In this document: piece by piece, positions 17,031-43,484 of the stretch
How the letters are laid out: each line of letters starts with the position of its first letter
Numbering within the stretch: position 1 is the first letter of the stretch
Origin: Phycisphaerae bacterium
GTDB taxonomy: Bacteria; Planctomycetota; Phycisphaerae; UBA1845
Direction: 5' to 3'
NCBI GenBank assembly: GCA_028282665.1
Contig: JANQHN010000246.1
Coordinates: 1 to 43,484, forward strand
DNA: 43,484 bases
Notes under the pieces: model-generated
Databases searched by the model: none
Told to the model about the DNA's origin: nothing
Seen by the model: only the letters and a program-made list of their open reading frames with translations
Program-made: the position numbers and the translations under genes

Positions 17031-19010
17031 TTACGATCTTGTTTCCACCAGATCGACGAGCGACTGCACTCGTTTGGCGAGCCGGTTAGTGGGTGGCGTG
17101 TTCGCAATGGCCCGGGCAGCGGATAGGTTTTGGTCGCTTTCACGTACCTGGCTCGTCTCACGGATCAACTCACGCAAATCGGTAAGGCTTTCCTTGCTGC
17201 TGTCGATCAAATGGGCGAGGCGTTCCACTCTACCGGTACGTCTGGGGGGACCAACAGGAAGCACGACTTCCTGCTGCAACGCCGCTTTCTCCTTGATAAT
17301 CCGTTCCTGTTGTTGAGCTTGCTCACCACGCTCTTCGATGCGATCAAGGATACGGCGAAGCACTGCCGTAAGTCGACCGGTACGTTCTGACTGCTTAGCA
17401 AGATTTGTCGTGATTTCCTTGGAGCGGCTTTGCGCTTTTTGGCTTGACTTTGTTTCCACTGCCAGACTTTCGAGAGTTTTTTTCGTATCGCCCAACATGG
17501 AACGAGCGATCTCCACGAGCGTTTTTACCTGTTCCTCTCGTTTGTTGAGGTCAGCGGAAACCTTAACGAACTCGCTGATTGACTCCCCAGCTGATCGGCA
17601 CATCAGTTCAAGCTGTGCTTTTAGCTCCTGTCCTTCCCGTAAATTCTTTTCAAGGTCATCGATGGGACGATCAACCGAGGCCAATCGTTCGCCCATCGCC
17701 GACAGCCGAGCGTTGATTTCCATTTGGGCAGCACGTAATTCATCACGTTGTACAGTGTTCGTTCCATTGCGATCAATCTTGTCGACACGGCGCGCCAGGA
17801 CGGTGATATCGCCGGTTAGTTCACGGCGCAATTCGCGGAGCGCTCCGCGGTCGCTATGATTCACTCCCGAACGTTCCATGCGTTCGACGCGGCCCGCAAG
17901 GTCTCTTAGCGTCGCAAGAATATCCGCTGCCTGCTCACGACCCAAACCACCTCCGCCTCCTCCGGTTATGTCTCGGCGGAAGAGCACACGGTCCAGCCGG
18001 TCTTCGATCATCAGCAAACGAGATGCGAGCGTGTAGTAGTCTGACGATCGACCGACCTGCGGCGAAGCGTCATGATCCTGCTCCGTATAGGCATCGTCAC
18101 AATGACGATCGCGGAGCCGATCCTCGCGAACTGCATTTGACAGCGAAGCGATCACGCGCGTCGAGGAACGCATCGACGGCACTTCGCCTCCCGCGGGCGA
18201 GCCTATGGTCATCATCTGATCGACTACCGAATCGACAAACCCGCCGTCGATCTTGTGGCGATCCGCCGAGTAGGCGCTGAGCATCGCGTTATCACAAATA
18301 GTGTTAATGACGCGCGGCAGTCCTTGCGATTCCTCATAGATACGATCGATGGCCGATGTCGTGAAGATGCTCAAATCGGTTGCGCCCGCCACAGACAGGC
18401 GGTGCTTGATGTAACCTTCCGCAAGCTTCCTACTCAATTGTGGCAGGTGAAAGCTGCGAAAGATGCGCTGTTTGAGCTGGCGCAATTCGCGCGATTCGAA
18501 TGTCGTGCGCAGTTCAGGTTGGCCTAGAATGACGATTTGCAACAGCTTTGCGTCATCGGCTTCGAGGTTCCCGATCATGCGCAATTGATCGAACACAGCG
18601 GGGGGTAGGCTTTGCGCTTCATCCAACACCAGCACCGTGGGCGTGTTTTGCGCGAACTGCGCTAACAAGTAGTCGTGCAGGATGCGAACCATCTGCGCAT
18701 TCGTTGCGTCTTCAGGATGTTGCAATTCGAACTCTGACAGGATGGTTTCCATCAGGTCAGACGGATCAGTCGTCGCGTGGTTGATCGTTGCGAAGCAGAT
18801 TTTCGTCCCAAAATGCCGGAGCATAAGCCTGGAGACCAGTGTCTTGCCGGCTCCCACTTCACCCGTAAGCAATACGAATCCTTTGCGTTCACTAACCGCA
18901 TAGATGAGTGACGCGAGCGCTTCCTCGTGATCCGGCGTCGAGAAAAAGAAACGCGGATCGGGTGTATTATTGAAGGGCAACTCCCGGAGTCCAAAAAAGT
19001 CCGCATACAT
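17031..19010 (-). CDS. ExeA-like AAA ATPase of the PEP-CTERM/EPS-locus type, with long coiled-coil C-terminus
   Basis: MYADFFGLRELPFNNTPDPRFFFSTPDHEEALASLIYAVSERKGFVLLTGEVGAGKTLVSRLML; Walker B TVLVLDEAQSLPP; Lys/Glu/Arg-rich heptad-like C-terminal half. Confidence 0.88.
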   Translation of the reverse strand: MYADFFGLRELPFNNTPDPRFFFSTPDHEEALASLIYAVSERKGFVLLTGEVGAGKTLVSRLMLRHFGTKICFATINHATTDPSDLMETILSEFELQHPEDATNAQMVRILHDYLLAQFAQNTPTVLVLDEAQSLPPAVFDQLRMIGNLEADDAKLLQIVILGQPELRTTFESRELRQLKQRIFRSFHLPQLSRKLAEGYIKHRLSVAGATDLSIFTTSAIDRIYEESQGLPRVINTICDNAMLSAYSADRHKIDGGFVDSVVDQMMTIGSPAGGEVPSMRSSTRVIASLSNAVREDRLRDRHCDDAYTEQDHDASPQVGRSSDYYTLASRLLMIEDRLDRVLFRRDITGGGGGGLGREQAADILATLRDLAGRVERMERSGVNHSDRGALRELRRELTGDITVLARRVDKIDRNGTNTVQRDELRAAQMEINARLSAMGERLASVDRPIDDLEKNLREGQELKAQLELMCRSAGESISEFVKVSADLNKREEQVKTLVEIARSMLGDTKKTLESLAVETKSSQKAQSRSKEITTNLAKQSERTGRLTAVLRRILDRIEERGEQAQQQERIIKEKAALQQEVVLPVGPPRRTGRVERLAHLIDSSKESLTDLRELIRETSQVRESDQNLSAARAIANTPPTNRLAKRVQSLVDLVETRS

Positions 19011-19325
19011 GTTGCATCTCTCTTGCGCGCAAAGGACTCGACCGGCCCGCAGGGGGCCTACCTGAAGAATATCGGTCCCAATGCAGCGATCCTTAAACAC
19101 GGTGAATGCAGTCGATCAGAGAGTGATCAGAGTTTATTCGGACCTTAGGGGTAGCTGAAATGTGCGCGCGGCACTTATTATCGCCCAGGTCTGAATAATC
19201 ATGCTCCGATAGATTCAGGCGTCCCCCTGGTAACCCGATAAGTCGAGCGTGGAGAAAGCAAGCCGATAACGTGCGGGCACCGGTCCGCGCACGGATCTTG
19301 ATGAATGCGTTGATCGGAGGCGATC

Positions 19326-38198: not shown

Positions 38199-39164
38199 TC
38201 AACGCCGACGGATAAGAACAAACCAGCACGCACCGAGCAGCACGAATGTGCCAGGCTCAGGAATCGATGCAATCGTGTCGTCGATCCAGTCGTTGAATAG
38301 GGAAAGACGCATACCGGCTGTGGAGCCAAAGTAATTCGGTGCGCCGGACTGGAAGCTCGAAATCCCCATAAGCTGCATCTCGCCCTCGACATCGATATAC
38401 CACCCGCCGCCGGAATCCCCCGGGATTCCAATGCCACCCAGAGGTTGATACGCCGGGTGACCCGGCGGAACGAACCGCATCACCGCGAAGTGCTCGGCAG
38501 CGCCGAAAGGCGGAAAGCCGAATTCGGTAAGTAAATTCTGACATGCACGTAGCCGGCCTGGGTCGTCACCCACACCTCCCGATGGCGTGGCGTCAACGCC
38601 GAAACCCGCCATGTCGATAAGGTTGCCGATCTGGTCCGTTCCACGGAAACGGGTTGCAGGTTCGACGCCCACGATCGGATCATCAAAGTAGAGGAGAGCC
38701 AGATCAACACCGGTAACGGTGTAGTCCCAATCGGGATGCGAAAACCACTGGTCAGCGACGAAGGTTTGCCCCGGGTCGTCCCAGACGTGCGTGCCCGTGC
38801 CGATACGCGCCCCTATATGCTCGAACTGATTATCCTCATCGAAAAGCGTGTGGGCCGCAGTCAGCGCCCAATGCGGATCAATCACGACGGATGAGCCCTT
38901 CCAAACGTCACCGTCATCGTTGATGCCGGACAACCAAACCATCGAACTGAAATTCAGGCCGTGTTGCCGGTAGAGCAGATCATCCACGCCATCATGCCGC
39001 CCGATCCCCAGGCCGGCCGGAACAAACACACCCATGGAGAACCAAACCACCATAACGGTTCCAATCCGGGCGTAACGCTCAAAAGCGATTTTCCGGCAGT
39101 GCCAAACACGGTGTTGGAGGCTGGCTGGAGCTTGCTCTGGAAGAATTTTTGTTGGTGAATGCAC
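38199..39164 (-). CDS. Trypsin-like serine protease with PEP-CTERM anchor
   Basis: LTAAHTLF (His), DLALLYF (Asp), GIPGDSGGGW (Ser); C-terminal SIPEPGTFVLLGACWFVLIRRR. Confidence 0.92.
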   Translation of the reverse strand: MHSPTKILPEQAPASLQHRVWHCRKIAFERYARIGTVMVVWFSMGVFVPAGLGIGRHDGVDDLLYRQHGLNFSSMVWLSGINDDGDVWKGSSVVIDPHWALTAAHTLFDEDNQFEHIGARIGTGTHVWDDPGQTFVADQWFSHPDWDYTVTGVDLALLYFDDPIVGVEPATRFRGTDQIGNLIDMAGFGVDATPSGGVGDDPGRLRACQNLLTEFGFPPFGAAEHFAVMRFVPPGHPAYQPLGGIGIPGDSGGGWYIDVEGEMQLMGISSFQSGAPNYFGSTAGMRLSLFNDWIDDTIASIPEPGTFVLLGACWFVLIRRR

Positions 39165-39520: not shown

Positions 39521-39658
39521 CGGGTATCGAAGACGCGCTGTCCCACCCAAGGGGTCGAGTATCGACGATGCGCTTCTCCGCCTGAAGGTCAGGTATCGAA
39601 GACGCACCTCCCCGCCCAAGGAATCGGGAACCGAAGACGCGCTTCCCCGCCCGGAGGG
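39521..39658. repeat. Degenerate 34-35 bp tandem repeat (4 units, probable fifth diverged copy at 39416-39450)
   Basis: CGGGTATCGAAGACGCGCTGTCCCACCCAAGGGGT / CGAGTATCGACGATGCGCTTCTCCGCCTGAAGGT / CAGGTATCGAAGACGCACCTCCCCGCCCAAGGAAT / CGGGAACCGAAGACGCGCTTCCCCGCCCGGAGGG. Confidence 0.75.
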
Positions 39659-40302: not shown

Positions 40303-40592
40303 AGAGCGGATACGGAACCGGCAGCCACGAGAAAGCTTCCACGCTTCGCCCGACCCCGCCGAAACGGCATGCGGACTTTCTTCCACCTATTCGACTGGCC
40401 GGAACCGCCGCCATAATTGGAATAAGACGCCGTATCGTCGTTTTCGAGCAGTTCGGAATTCAGACCAAACCAATTTGTATTCGCCAAAGCACATACCCAT
40501 AATAAGGGTAGTCTATCCATTTGCTGGAAACCGACTTCGCGTCGCTTCTATGGATGTGGCAACTTCACTTCGCACACAGGACTCGAATCGGG

Positions 40593-43484
40593 ATGAACAA
40601 AGAAACCAGTCCTTTCTATCCATACATTCGCGCCATCGCCAAAGCACTGGAATTCCCCGGCACGAAGATCGGCCTGAGCGTCCTGACGGACCTTCAGGAC
40701 CAGCTCTCGCAAGACGAACACAATAAACGTGTCATCGCCGCCCTCGACGAAATCACCACCAACACCGCGGCCATCCACACGGAATTAAAACGCGACAACA
40801 TCACGGTCGCCGAAGCTGACCTGACCGCCGCCGGCCTTGAAATCGCCGAAGCGTTTTACCTCGATCAGGTCGCAAAGAAATTTCTCTATGCCGATTTCAA
40901 AGGCATGCTGGATTCCACGAAGGCGATCCCGCTGAAGCTCGATGACATCTTCGTGGATCTTCGCGTCGTGCGGGAGCGATCGTCGCGTGAAAGCCTGGAC
41001 AAAGAATCCGTGCTTCGAAAACGCTGGACACTGTTGGACGAAGAGGAGATGGACGGCGTCGAAGAGGAGATGGGCGGTGTCGAAGAGGAGATAGCCGAAC
41101 TCGATGCGGAACGCAGTTACGGCTACTTATCCGGCGGCGCAGAGGAAACGATCGACAAAATCCTCGCCGAACCCGGCGGCTTCGTGCTCTTGGGCGGCCC
41201 GGGCTCGGGCAAAACCACCCTCGTCAAACGCCTCGCCCGCAGCCTCGCACTGGGGCGCGAAACGTCCGCGAAACGTTACCCGCAAATGCCGTGGGCCTTC
41301 CCGTACATCAGCGCCGCTGCCCGATTCGACGATCAAAAAAACACCGAGTCGCTTTACGATTTCATCAAGGTGGACATGCGGGAATCCGGCGGCGAAGCAC
41401 TTGTCCGAAACTTCGAAGAGCATTGGGTGGCCGGCAGTTGCCTGATCCTGCTGGACGGCCTGGACGAAATCGCGGACACGGGACGGCGCATCCAATGCGC
41501 TCGCGCGGCGGAGGACCTCATCAAGTCCGCCGGAGACAACCGCGTCCTGGTAACGTCCCGACCGGTCGGCTACAGCATCACGCGCCTGTCCGTACCCGCG
41601 ACCCACGTCCACGTGCAGACCTTCGCGCGGGACGACATCGAAACCTTCGTTAGACAATGGCACCTCGCCTATGAAAAACAAACGCACGAGGAATCTCCGG
41701 ATTTAGCCCAGGCCGAGAAGGAAGCCGGCGAGCTTTTCGATGAAATCACCTCCAACCCGCGCGTCGAATCCCTCGCCACCAACCCGCTCATGCTGACCAT
41801 CATCGCGCTCATCAAACGGGCGCACGTCATCCTGCCGCAGCGACGAGCAAAGCTTTACGAAACCGCGCTGACCGCCCTCATCGACAGTTGGAACAAGGCT
41901 CGCAGCATGCACCGCCCCATCGGTCGCGAGCTGAGCGTCGAGGAAATGAAAAAAGCACTCGAAGAGGTCGCTTTCTGGATGCACGAAAACAAGACCACTG
42001 GCACCTGCCCGCGCGAGCAGTTGCAGGACCACCTTGTCGAATGGCTCAAAAACAAGATGAACATGAAGGAGATGGAGGCGACGAAAACGGCGGAAGGGTA
42101 CATCCAGACCGCCGCCGAATACGCAGGGTTGCTCGACGAACGCGGTCCCGGCGTTTTCGCCTTCATGCACCAGACCTTTCAGGAATATCTCGCCGCCCGC
42201 CACCTGGCCAGACAGTATAACAAGGAGCCTCAGAGTGTAATGAAACTGGAGAATGATCCGCGTTGGCACGAGGTCATCCGCCTCACCGCCGGCTACATCG
42301 GCGTAGTAAATGAATATGACGACGTGGCCTCGGAGTTGATCGAGGCCATGATTGATGAGCGTGAAGAGAATGATCCGCTCGAACCGTTTCTTTGCACGCG
42401 CCTTCGCCTCGCCGCGTCCTGCGTGGCGGACGACGTAGGTGTGTCACAGGAGGTGGCGGATCGCGTCGTCGCGCAAATCGCGGAACGAATCGTCGCTTCG
42501 CCTTATGAGCAACTTGTCAAGGGTCTGAATAACGCCCTGGCTTCTTTAACTTCGTATTGCCCTGGCAACCACGACACCCTGAACGGCCTCATAGACCTAA
42601 CTACGCACAATAACTGGTCTGCTCGAATGGAAGCGGCGCGTCTTTTGGCCCGCCGCGAAGACACGGAAGGACGGGTTGTGGGTACGCTTAGTCGCCTCTT
42701 TGAGGAAGATTCCGATCCTGATGTGCGAGCACACGCTGCCGTCGGAATCTGGCGTACAGGTCTACGTATCGATGCCCCGATCATGAATTCGATATTCCGG
42801 GGAATGGCAAGTGATAGCGCTAATTTGCAGATGTCGGCAACGGATGAACTCGTCGCTGCTGCGTTGAAGCTGTTGGAGGATAGAGATGCATATGTTCGCT
42901 TGGCTGCGGCAAAAGTTCTAGGTAGGTGGGATATTCCGTTCGAGGCGTTGTCGGCGTTGCTGAAGTTGTTGGAGGATAGGGATTTGAATGTTCGCTGGCG
43001 TGCGGCGGCAGTTCTGGGCGAGTGGGATCTTCAACCCGAGGCGTTGCCGGCGTTGCTGAAGCTGTTGGAGGATGAGGACACATATGTTCGCCAGCGCGCG
43101 GCGGCAGTTCTGGATAAGTGGGATGTTCAGTCCAAGGCGTTGCCGGCGTTACTCAAGCTGTTGAAGCATGAGGACACGCATGTTCGCTGGCGTACGGCGA
43201 CAGTTCTGGGCGAGTGGAATGTTCAGCCCAAATTGTTGCCAGCGTTGCTGAAGCTATTGGAGGATAGAAATGCGAATGTTCGCTGGCATGCGACAGCTGT
43301 TCTGGGCGAGTGGGATCTTCAGACCGAAGCGTTGCCGGTGTTGCTGAAGCTGTTGGAGGATAGGTATGCGTCTGTTCGCCGGCGTGCGGCGGAAGTTCTG
43401 GGCGAGTGGGATCTTCAGCCCGAGACGTTGCTGGCATTGCTGAAGTTGTTGAAGGATGAGGACGCGTATGTTCGCCTAAATGCA
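40593..43484 (+). CDS. NACHT-domain STAND NTPase with C-terminal HEAT-like repeats (bacterial NLR-like), truncated at window edge
   Basis: Manual translation from ATG 40593 stays open to the window end. Walker A FVLLGGPGSGKTTLVKRLA, Walker B SCLILLDGLDEIAD, VLVTSRPVGY, then helical region (FMHQTFQEYLAARHLA), then tandem HEAT-like units. Absent from the ORF track because there is no stop in the window. Confidence 0.9.
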   Translation, partial: MNKETSPFYPYIRAIAKALEFPGTKIGLSVLTDLQDQLSQDEHNKRVIAALDEITTNTAAIHTELKRDNITVAEADLTAAGLEIAEAFYLDQVAKKFLYADFKGMLDSTKAIPLKLDDIFVDLRVVRERSSRESLDKESVLRKRWTLLDEEEMDGVEEEMGGVEEEIAELDAERSYGYLSGGAEETIDKILAEPGGFVLLGGPGSGKTTLVKRLARSLALGRETSAKRYPQMPWAFPYISAAARFDDQKNTESLYDFIKVDMRESGGEALVRNFEEHWVAGSCLILLDGLDEIADTGRRIQCARAAEDLIKSAGDNRVLVTSRPVGYSITRLSVPATHVHVQTFARDDIETFVRQWHLAYEKQTHEESPDLAQAEKEAGELFDEITSNPRVESLATNPLMLTIIALIKRAHVILPQRRAKLYETALTALIDSWNKARSMHRPIGRELSVEEMKKALEEVAFWMHENKTTGTCPREQLQDHLVEWLKNKMNMKEMEATKTAEGYIQTAAEYAGLLDERGPGVFAFMHQTFQEYLAARHLARQYNKEPQSVMKLENDPRWHEVIRLTAGYIGVVNEYDDVASELIEAMIDEREENDPLEPFLCTRLRLAASCVADDVGVSQEVADRVVAQIAERIVASPYEQLVKGLNNALASLTSYCPGNHDTLNGLIDLTTHNNWSARMEAARLLARREDTEGRVVGTLSRLFEEDSDPDVRAHAAVGIWRTGLRIDAPIMNSIFRGMASDSANLQMSATDELVAAALKLLEDRDAYVRLAAAKVLGRWDIPFEALSALLKLLEDRDLNVRWRAAAVLGEWDLQPEALPALLKLLEDEDTYVRQRAAAVLDKWDVQSKALPALLKLLKHEDTHVRWRTATVLGEWNVQPKLLPALLKLLEDRNANVRWHATAVLGEWDLQTEALPVLLKLLEDRYASVRRRAAEVLGEWDLQPETLLALLKLLKDEDAYVRLNA
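42852..43484 (+). repeat. 96-bp (32-aa) tandem HEAT-like repeat array, at least 7 units
   Basis: Units start at 42852, 42948, 43044, 43140, 43236, 43332, 43428; consensus LPALLKLLEDxxxxVRxRAAAVLGEWDLQPEA. Confidence 0.92.

What the first reader, a model, noticed from the sequence alone, without database searches (positions are those of the whole stretch)
42852..43484. Near-identical HEAT units with clustered variable positions, suggesting a diversifying recognition surface
Seen: exact 96-bp period with very similar framework (LPALLKLLED....VR..AA.VLGEWD.QPEA). Differences cluster at unit positions about 11-14 (RDLN, EDTY, EDTH, RNAN, RYAS, EDAY), 17-18 (WR, QR, WH, RR, LN) and 20-21. Established: high internal conservation of repeats with a few hypervariable sites is known in fungal NLR-type allorecognition genes. 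Inference: concerted repeat exchange with selection on binding residues. Such arrays are also prone to copy-number change.
Basis: partly seen in the sequence, partly recalled or inferred. Interest (0 to 1): 0.7.

Follow-up and report, generated by a model that had tools for sequence, protein, structure and literature searches.

The report
Bacterial NLR-like protein with HEAT array
A bacterial immune-receptor-like protein ends in a row of recently duplicated HEAT repeats that differ mostly at the known binding-surface positions; this is the usual pattern for this repeat family, so it looks like a sensor domain but does not by itself show rapid diversification.

Summary
The repeats are real. An ORF at 40593-43484 (+), cut by the contig end, encodes an N-terminal helical region, a canonical NACHT NTPase and a C-terminal alpha-solenoid ending in seven 32-aa (96-bp) HEAT units (the seventh incomplete). 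"Near-identical" is overstated: full units share 41-81% of residues (mean 62%) and 60-88% of bases, well below the 85% criterion for high-internal-conservation NLR repeats. DNA identity (0.78) still exceeds a synonymous-codon null (0.64-0.68), so recent tandem duplication or homogenisation is supported.

Clustering of differences is also real. It falls on unit positions 13, 14, 17, 18 and 21 (weaker at 25), all on predicted helix B. These match the randomised binding positions of alphaRep, designed binders built from natural HEAT-like repeats. But the same positions vary in unrelated HEAT arrays, including proteins without NACHT. pN/pS there is about 1.07 (column bootstrap 0.71-1.94) against 0.48 in the framework, so relaxed constraint suffices and positive selection is not shown. 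No second array, allele or reverse transcriptase was found.

Most likely: the sensor of a bacterial NLR-related (bNACHT-type) protein, probably anti-phage. A new member of a known kind; active diversification is possible but untested.

The parts
40593..43484 (+). Open reading frame of the NACHT-HEAT protein (964 aa from the first likely ATG; 3' end missing, cut by the contig end)
   Evidence: ORF list, translation; window is the whole contig C19. The frame is open further upstream (TTG at 40521), so the start is a guess.
40593..41159 (+). N-terminal helical region, possible adaptor or effector; no family match
   Evidence: Pfam without significant hit; no homologue in 398 genomes of the class or in plasmids; low-confidence mostly helical model
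41184..41663 (+). NACHT NTPase domain with Walker A GGPGSGKTT and Walker B LILLDGLDE
   Evidence: Pfam PF05729 E=2.7e-15, own-genome search 61.3 bits, motifs invariant in the alignment A1
41664..42851 (+). Post-NACHT helical region (with FMHQTFQEYLAAR motif) passing into divergent HEAT-like helices
   Evidence: Alignment, helices in the models, weak HEAT_2 match at residues 663-716
42852..43484 (+). Array of seven 96-bp HEAT units (starts 42852, 42948, 43044, 43140, 43236, 43332, 43428; last one cut)
   Evidence: TRF, unit alignment, Pfam HEAT_2, alphaRep matches
42984..43022 (+). Helix B of the second unit (unit positions 13-25), example of the variable surface; the same stretch recurs every 96 bp
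   Evidence: Model helix 140-152 of window 42567-43484; variable columns 13, 14, 17, 18, 21

Best explanation
The array is the C-terminal ligand-sensing alpha-solenoid of a bacterial NLR-related (NACHT, STAND-class) protein. Each 32-aa unit is two helices. Helix B of successive units lines one face of the superhelix, and its exposed residues (unit positions 13, 14, 17, 18, 21, 25) together form the ligand surface, while the framework keeps the fold (by homology to alphaRep). The array grew by fairly recent tandem duplication (shown at DNA level), after which the surface positions drifted or were selected apart (cause not resolved). Binding of a foreign or stress-related protein, most plausibly from a phage (inferred from characterised bNACHT and Avs proteins), would release the NACHT domain to bind ATP and oligomerise, activating or recruiting an effector through the N-terminal region (inferred).
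For: NACHT and HEAT domains with intact nucleotide-binding motifs; best structural relatives are alphaRep binders, by sequence (E to 8e-50) and by fold, with the same variable positions (PMC3754942); amino-acid differences concentrate there; DNA identity above the synonymous null; relatives share the plan with swapped N-termini, e.g. Mrr nuclease in L006; weak partial match to antiphage NACHT protein EruA; bNACHT proteins with this tripartite plan defend against phages (PMC12169576).
Against: No ligand, effector or defence activity is known for this protein. The N-terminal region has no homologue. No defence genes were recognised beside it. PADLOC gives only weak partial hits. The 3' end is missing.
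Confidence: 0.65

Rival explanations
1. Actively diversifying sensor: units are exchanged and duplicated by recombination and surface positions are under positive selection, as in fungal het-d/het-e NLRs, giving strain-specific recognition.
For: Recent duplication at DNA level; pN at the surface columns over array-wide pS is 1.46, bootstrap 1.01-2.33; unit duplication also in relative L035; a 288-bp higher-order period.
Against: pN/pS at the columns themselves is 1.07 with interval 0.71-1.94; identity is below the high-internal-conservation criterion; no second gene to exchange with was found; no alleles available.
Confidence: 0.2
2. Ordinary HEAT array: tandem duplication with relaxed constraint on solvent-exposed helix-B positions; the solenoid serves as a fixed binding or scaffold domain (possibly regulatory, not immune) and its sites vary as in any HEAT-like protein.
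For: The same columns vary in 56 units of seven other arrays (rho 0.76), including HEAT proteins without NACHT; pN/pS about 1.
Against: Fusion to NACHT with variable N-termini in relatives is typical of conflict systems; fresh DNA-level duplication is not needed for a fixed scaffold. This rival differs from the best explanation mainly in role, not in anatomy.
Confidence: 0.14
3. Retroelement (DGR) hypermutation makes the variable positions, as in some STAND sensors.
For: DGRs diversify STAND-NTPase sensors in multicellular bacteria (PMC10907252).
Against: No reverse transcriptase match in the assembled genome (88% complete). Known targets there are C-type lectin folds. Codon differences are not confined to adenine-derived sites.
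Confidence: 0.01

Closest known systems
Bacterial NLR-related NACHT proteins (bNACHT; e.g. bNACHT25, PMC12169576)
   Same: Central NACHT domain, C-terminal presumed sensor, N-terminal presumed effector or adaptor; relative L006 even has an Mrr-type (PD-(D/E)XK-class) nuclease as bNACHT25 has a PD-(D/E)XK one
   Different: Sensor is a HEAT array, not the NCH1 or SNaCT domains described for bNACHT25 and clade 14; N-terminus is an orphan; defence not tested
alphaRep artificial HEAT-like binders (PMC3754942; PDB 4ZV6, 6FSQ, 4XL5 and others)
   Same: Same repeat type and fold; the variable positions correspond one to one
   Different: alphaRep is a designed library with 31-aa units; here the unit is 32 aa, natural, fused to NACHT
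Fungal NLRs with high internal conservation (het-d/het-e type; PMC4986451, PMC12222747)
   Same: NACHT protein with tandem similar repeats whose differences fall on the binding face; array breaks the assembly
   Different: Mean unit identity 62%, below the 85% criterion; positive selection and length polymorphism not shown; HEAT, bacterial
DGR-diversified STAND sensors (PMC10907252)
   Same: STAND NTPase with a putatively diversified C-terminal sensor
   Different: No reverse transcriptase found; not a C-type lectin fold

Membership tests
Bacterial NLR-related NACHT (STAND) proteins | NACHT domain with Walker A and B motifs | tested here: met
   Pfam E=2.7e-15, above the cut-off; motifs invariant among relatives
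Bacterial NLR-related NACHT (STAND) proteins | C-terminal superstructure-forming sensor | tested here: met
   HEAT array; sensing itself not tested
Bacterial NLR-related NACHT (STAND) proteins | N-terminal effector or adaptor domain | tested here: inconclusive
   No family match or homologue; low-confidence helical model
Bacterial NLR-related NACHT (STAND) proteins | Anti-phage activity | not testable with these tools
   Needs experiment
High-internal-conservation NLR repeats (fungal type) | At least 85% identity among repeats over at least 100 aa | tested here: not met
   Mean 62%, maximum 81% between units (criterion)
High-internal-conservation NLR repeats (fungal type) | Positive selection at a few surface codons | tested here: inconclusive
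   pN/pS 1.07, bootstrap 0.71-1.94; few units, low power
High-internal-conservation NLR repeats (fungal type) | Repeat number polymorphism among strains | not testable with these tools
   Single incomplete copy; no allelic relatives found
HEAT-like repeats of the alphaRep type | Two-helix unit with VR..AA..LG framework and variable positions 18, 19, 22, 23, 26, 30 (alphaRep numbering) | tested here: met
   Sequence matches, paper, unit alignment, helix register
DGR-diversified sensors | Reverse transcriptase encoded in the genome | tested here: not met
   No PF00078 match in the own genome, which is 88% complete

The most novel reading that the evidence does not exclude
A bacterial NLR whose HEAT sensor is rebuilt by ongoing unit duplication and exchange with selection on the inner-helix residues: a bacterial counterpart of fungal het-d/het-e sensors and a natural equivalent of an alphaRep binder library.
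Probability: 0.18. Interest if true: 0.65.

Novelty: new member of a known kind. Interest (0 to 1): 0.3.

Why it matters
If such arrays turn over within bacterial populations, bacteria would have an allelic, repeat-based way to change immune-receptor specificity without a reverse transcriptase. The exact match to alphaRep variable positions gives a ready structural prediction of which residues bind. As it stands, the case mainly shows that apparent hypervariable sites in HEAT arrays need a family-wide control before selection is inferred.

Tried and rejected
Second array copy or contig continuing the array in the same genome: none. Allelic relatives: closest NACHT relatives are about 30-38% identical, too distant to compare unit by unit. 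Array peptides in viral contigs: none. Plasmids gave only distant NACHT or HEAT proteins and phages two weak matches. N-terminal domain homologues: none. DGR: no reverse transcriptase. Adaptor shared with the nearby trypsin-like gene: no similarity; that protein ends in a PEP-CTERM-like sorting signal and is probably exported. Foreign origin of the sensor half: codon usage shifts (TTG is 51% of Leu in the array, 9% in the rest of the gene; GTT 88% of Val vs 7%), but the fit to contig codon usage is only modestly low (60-codon windows -1.18 to -1.38 against contig mean -1.146, sd 0.091) and duplicated units are not independent, so this is not pressed. Papers on EruA: none found; the Kibby et al. 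2023 bNACHT paper is not held. A model of the N-terminal half from three sequences was too weak to name the N-terminal domain (pLDDT 60.5).

Full report
What is there. The window is a whole contig (C19, 43,484 bp) of a 4.46-Mb, 446-contig assembly. The last ORF on the + strand, 40593-43484 from its first likely ATG, runs off the contig end. Pfam finds a NACHT domain (E=2.7e-15) and C-terminal HEAT repeats (E=1.7e-51). Walker A (GGPGSGKTT), Walker B (LILLDGLDE) and the FMHQTFQEYLAAR motif are present and shared with relatives from Deltaproteobacteria (L029) and Elusimicrobia (L030).

The array. Seven units of 96 bp begin at 42852; the seventh stops after 19 aa at the contig end. Tandem Repeats Finder reports periods of 96 and 288 bp. 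Full units share 41-81% of residues (mean 62%) and 60-88% of bases (mean 76%). They are similar, not near-identical. Among the second to seventh units the DNA identity is 0.78, while re-drawing synonymous codons for the same proteins gives 0.64 (rest-of-gene usage) or 0.68 (array usage), and no replicate of 1000 reaches the observed value.

Where the differences lie. The best solved-structure matches are alphaRep proteins, designed binders built from natural HEAT-like repeats. Their library varies positions 18, 19, 22, 23, 26 and 30, and in the A3 complex all A3 interface residues are randomised positions (PMC3754942). Aligned on the invariant VR, these are our positions 13, 14, 17, 18, 21 and 25. 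Using the first five as a set fixed from outside the data, pN is 0.435 against 0.135 elsewhere, reached by 0.03% of random column sets, while pS is not raised (22%). An AlphaFold2 model of the solenoid (single sequence, mean pLDDT 72, pTM 0.48) puts helix B at unit positions 13-25 in the regular units. The sites therefore lie on one helix, spaced as one face (inference).

What this does not show. pN/pS at the five columns is 1.07 (column bootstrap 0.71-1.94) against 0.48 (0.27-0.88) in the framework. That is what relaxed constraint gives. Scaled to array-wide pS the ratio is 1.46 (1.01-2.33), so weak positive selection is not excluded; with six or seven related units the test has little power. 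The same columns are the variable ones in 56 HEAT units from seven other loci (Spearman 0.76 with the window profile). These include L018 and L019, which show only HEAT/ARM-type families and no NACHT in Pfam. The pattern is thus a property of the repeat family, not a mark of this receptor.

Relatives. No close orthologue was found: the best are about 30-38% identical over the NACHT part. L006 has the same plan with an Mrr-type nuclease N-terminus and a HEAT array of low DNA identity. L035, from the same family of genomes, has a different N-terminus, NACHT, and about five 93-bp units (TRF 84% matches), of which three are 91% identical in DNA and nearly identical at the 'variable' positions. So unit duplication recurs in NACHT-HEAT proteins of this family, and fresh duplicates start out alike at the binding positions. 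L029 also ends at its contig end just as HEAT-like sequence begins. This is consistent with such arrays breaking short-read assemblies, as reported for fungal NLRs (PMC12222747), though the longest exact repeat inside the window's array is only 24 bp, so repeat-driven breakage here is an inference.

How it probably works. Shown: domain order, intact NACHT motifs, recent repeat duplication, and concentration of amino-acid differences on positions homologous to a proven binding surface. Inferred: the solenoid binds a ligand, ligand binding drives NACHT oligomerisation, and the N-terminal region acts as effector or adaptor. Characterised bacterial NACHT proteins defend against phages with this tripartite plan (PMC12169576). 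A weak, partial match to NCBIfam's antiphage NACHT protein EruA fits. The neighbourhood does not help: the upstream genes are a probable GNAT-like acetyltransferase (by eye) and, on the other strand, a probably exported trypsin-like protein without similarity to the N-terminus.

Comparison with known systems. It meets the sequence criteria of bacterial NLR-related NACHT proteins. It fails the stated criterion for fungal high-internal-conservation repeats (at least 85% identity over 100 aa; PMC4986451). Retroelement hypermutation, known for some STAND sensors (PMC10907252), is unlikely because no reverse transcriptase was found in the 88%-complete genome.

Verdict. A real feature, mostly ordinary: a new member of a known kind. 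The claim of a diversifying surface remains possible (about 0.2) and needs alleles.

Noticed in passing
window 40593-43484: Codon usage changes within the gene: the NACHT half has GC3 0.65-0.85, the pre-array solenoid about 0.5, and the array uses TTG for half its Leu and GTT for most Val (7-9% in the rest). Might mark a sensor half of different origin.
   Followed up: partly
L035 3559-4116: A NACHT protein of the same family of genomes carries about five 93-bp HEAT units, the inner three 91% identical in DNA, in an array that is not cut by a contig end: a better test case for unit turnover than the window.
   Followed up: partly
L039 3806-4927 and 7270-8368 (Scytonema sp. NIES-4073 plasmid): Two 99-bp HEAT arrays of about ten units each, annotated as NACHT signal-transduction or hypothetical proteins, with transposase genes between and beside them.
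   Followed up: no
window 39523-39652: Imperfect intergenic tandem repeat of about 69 or 35 bp (ATCGAAGACGCGCTTCCCCGCC-like) between the trypsin-like and acetyltransferase genes.
   Followed up: no
window 38199-39164 (-): Trypsin-like protein with a C-terminal PEP-CTERM-like signal (IPEPGTFVLLGACWFVLIRRR); the contig also encodes a match to the XrtA/PEP-CTERM-associated ATPase at 17031-19100.
   Followed up: partly
window 41039-41092: Short 21-bp in-frame tandem repeat (EEEMDGV / EEEMGGV) in the linker before the NACHT domain.
   Followed up: no
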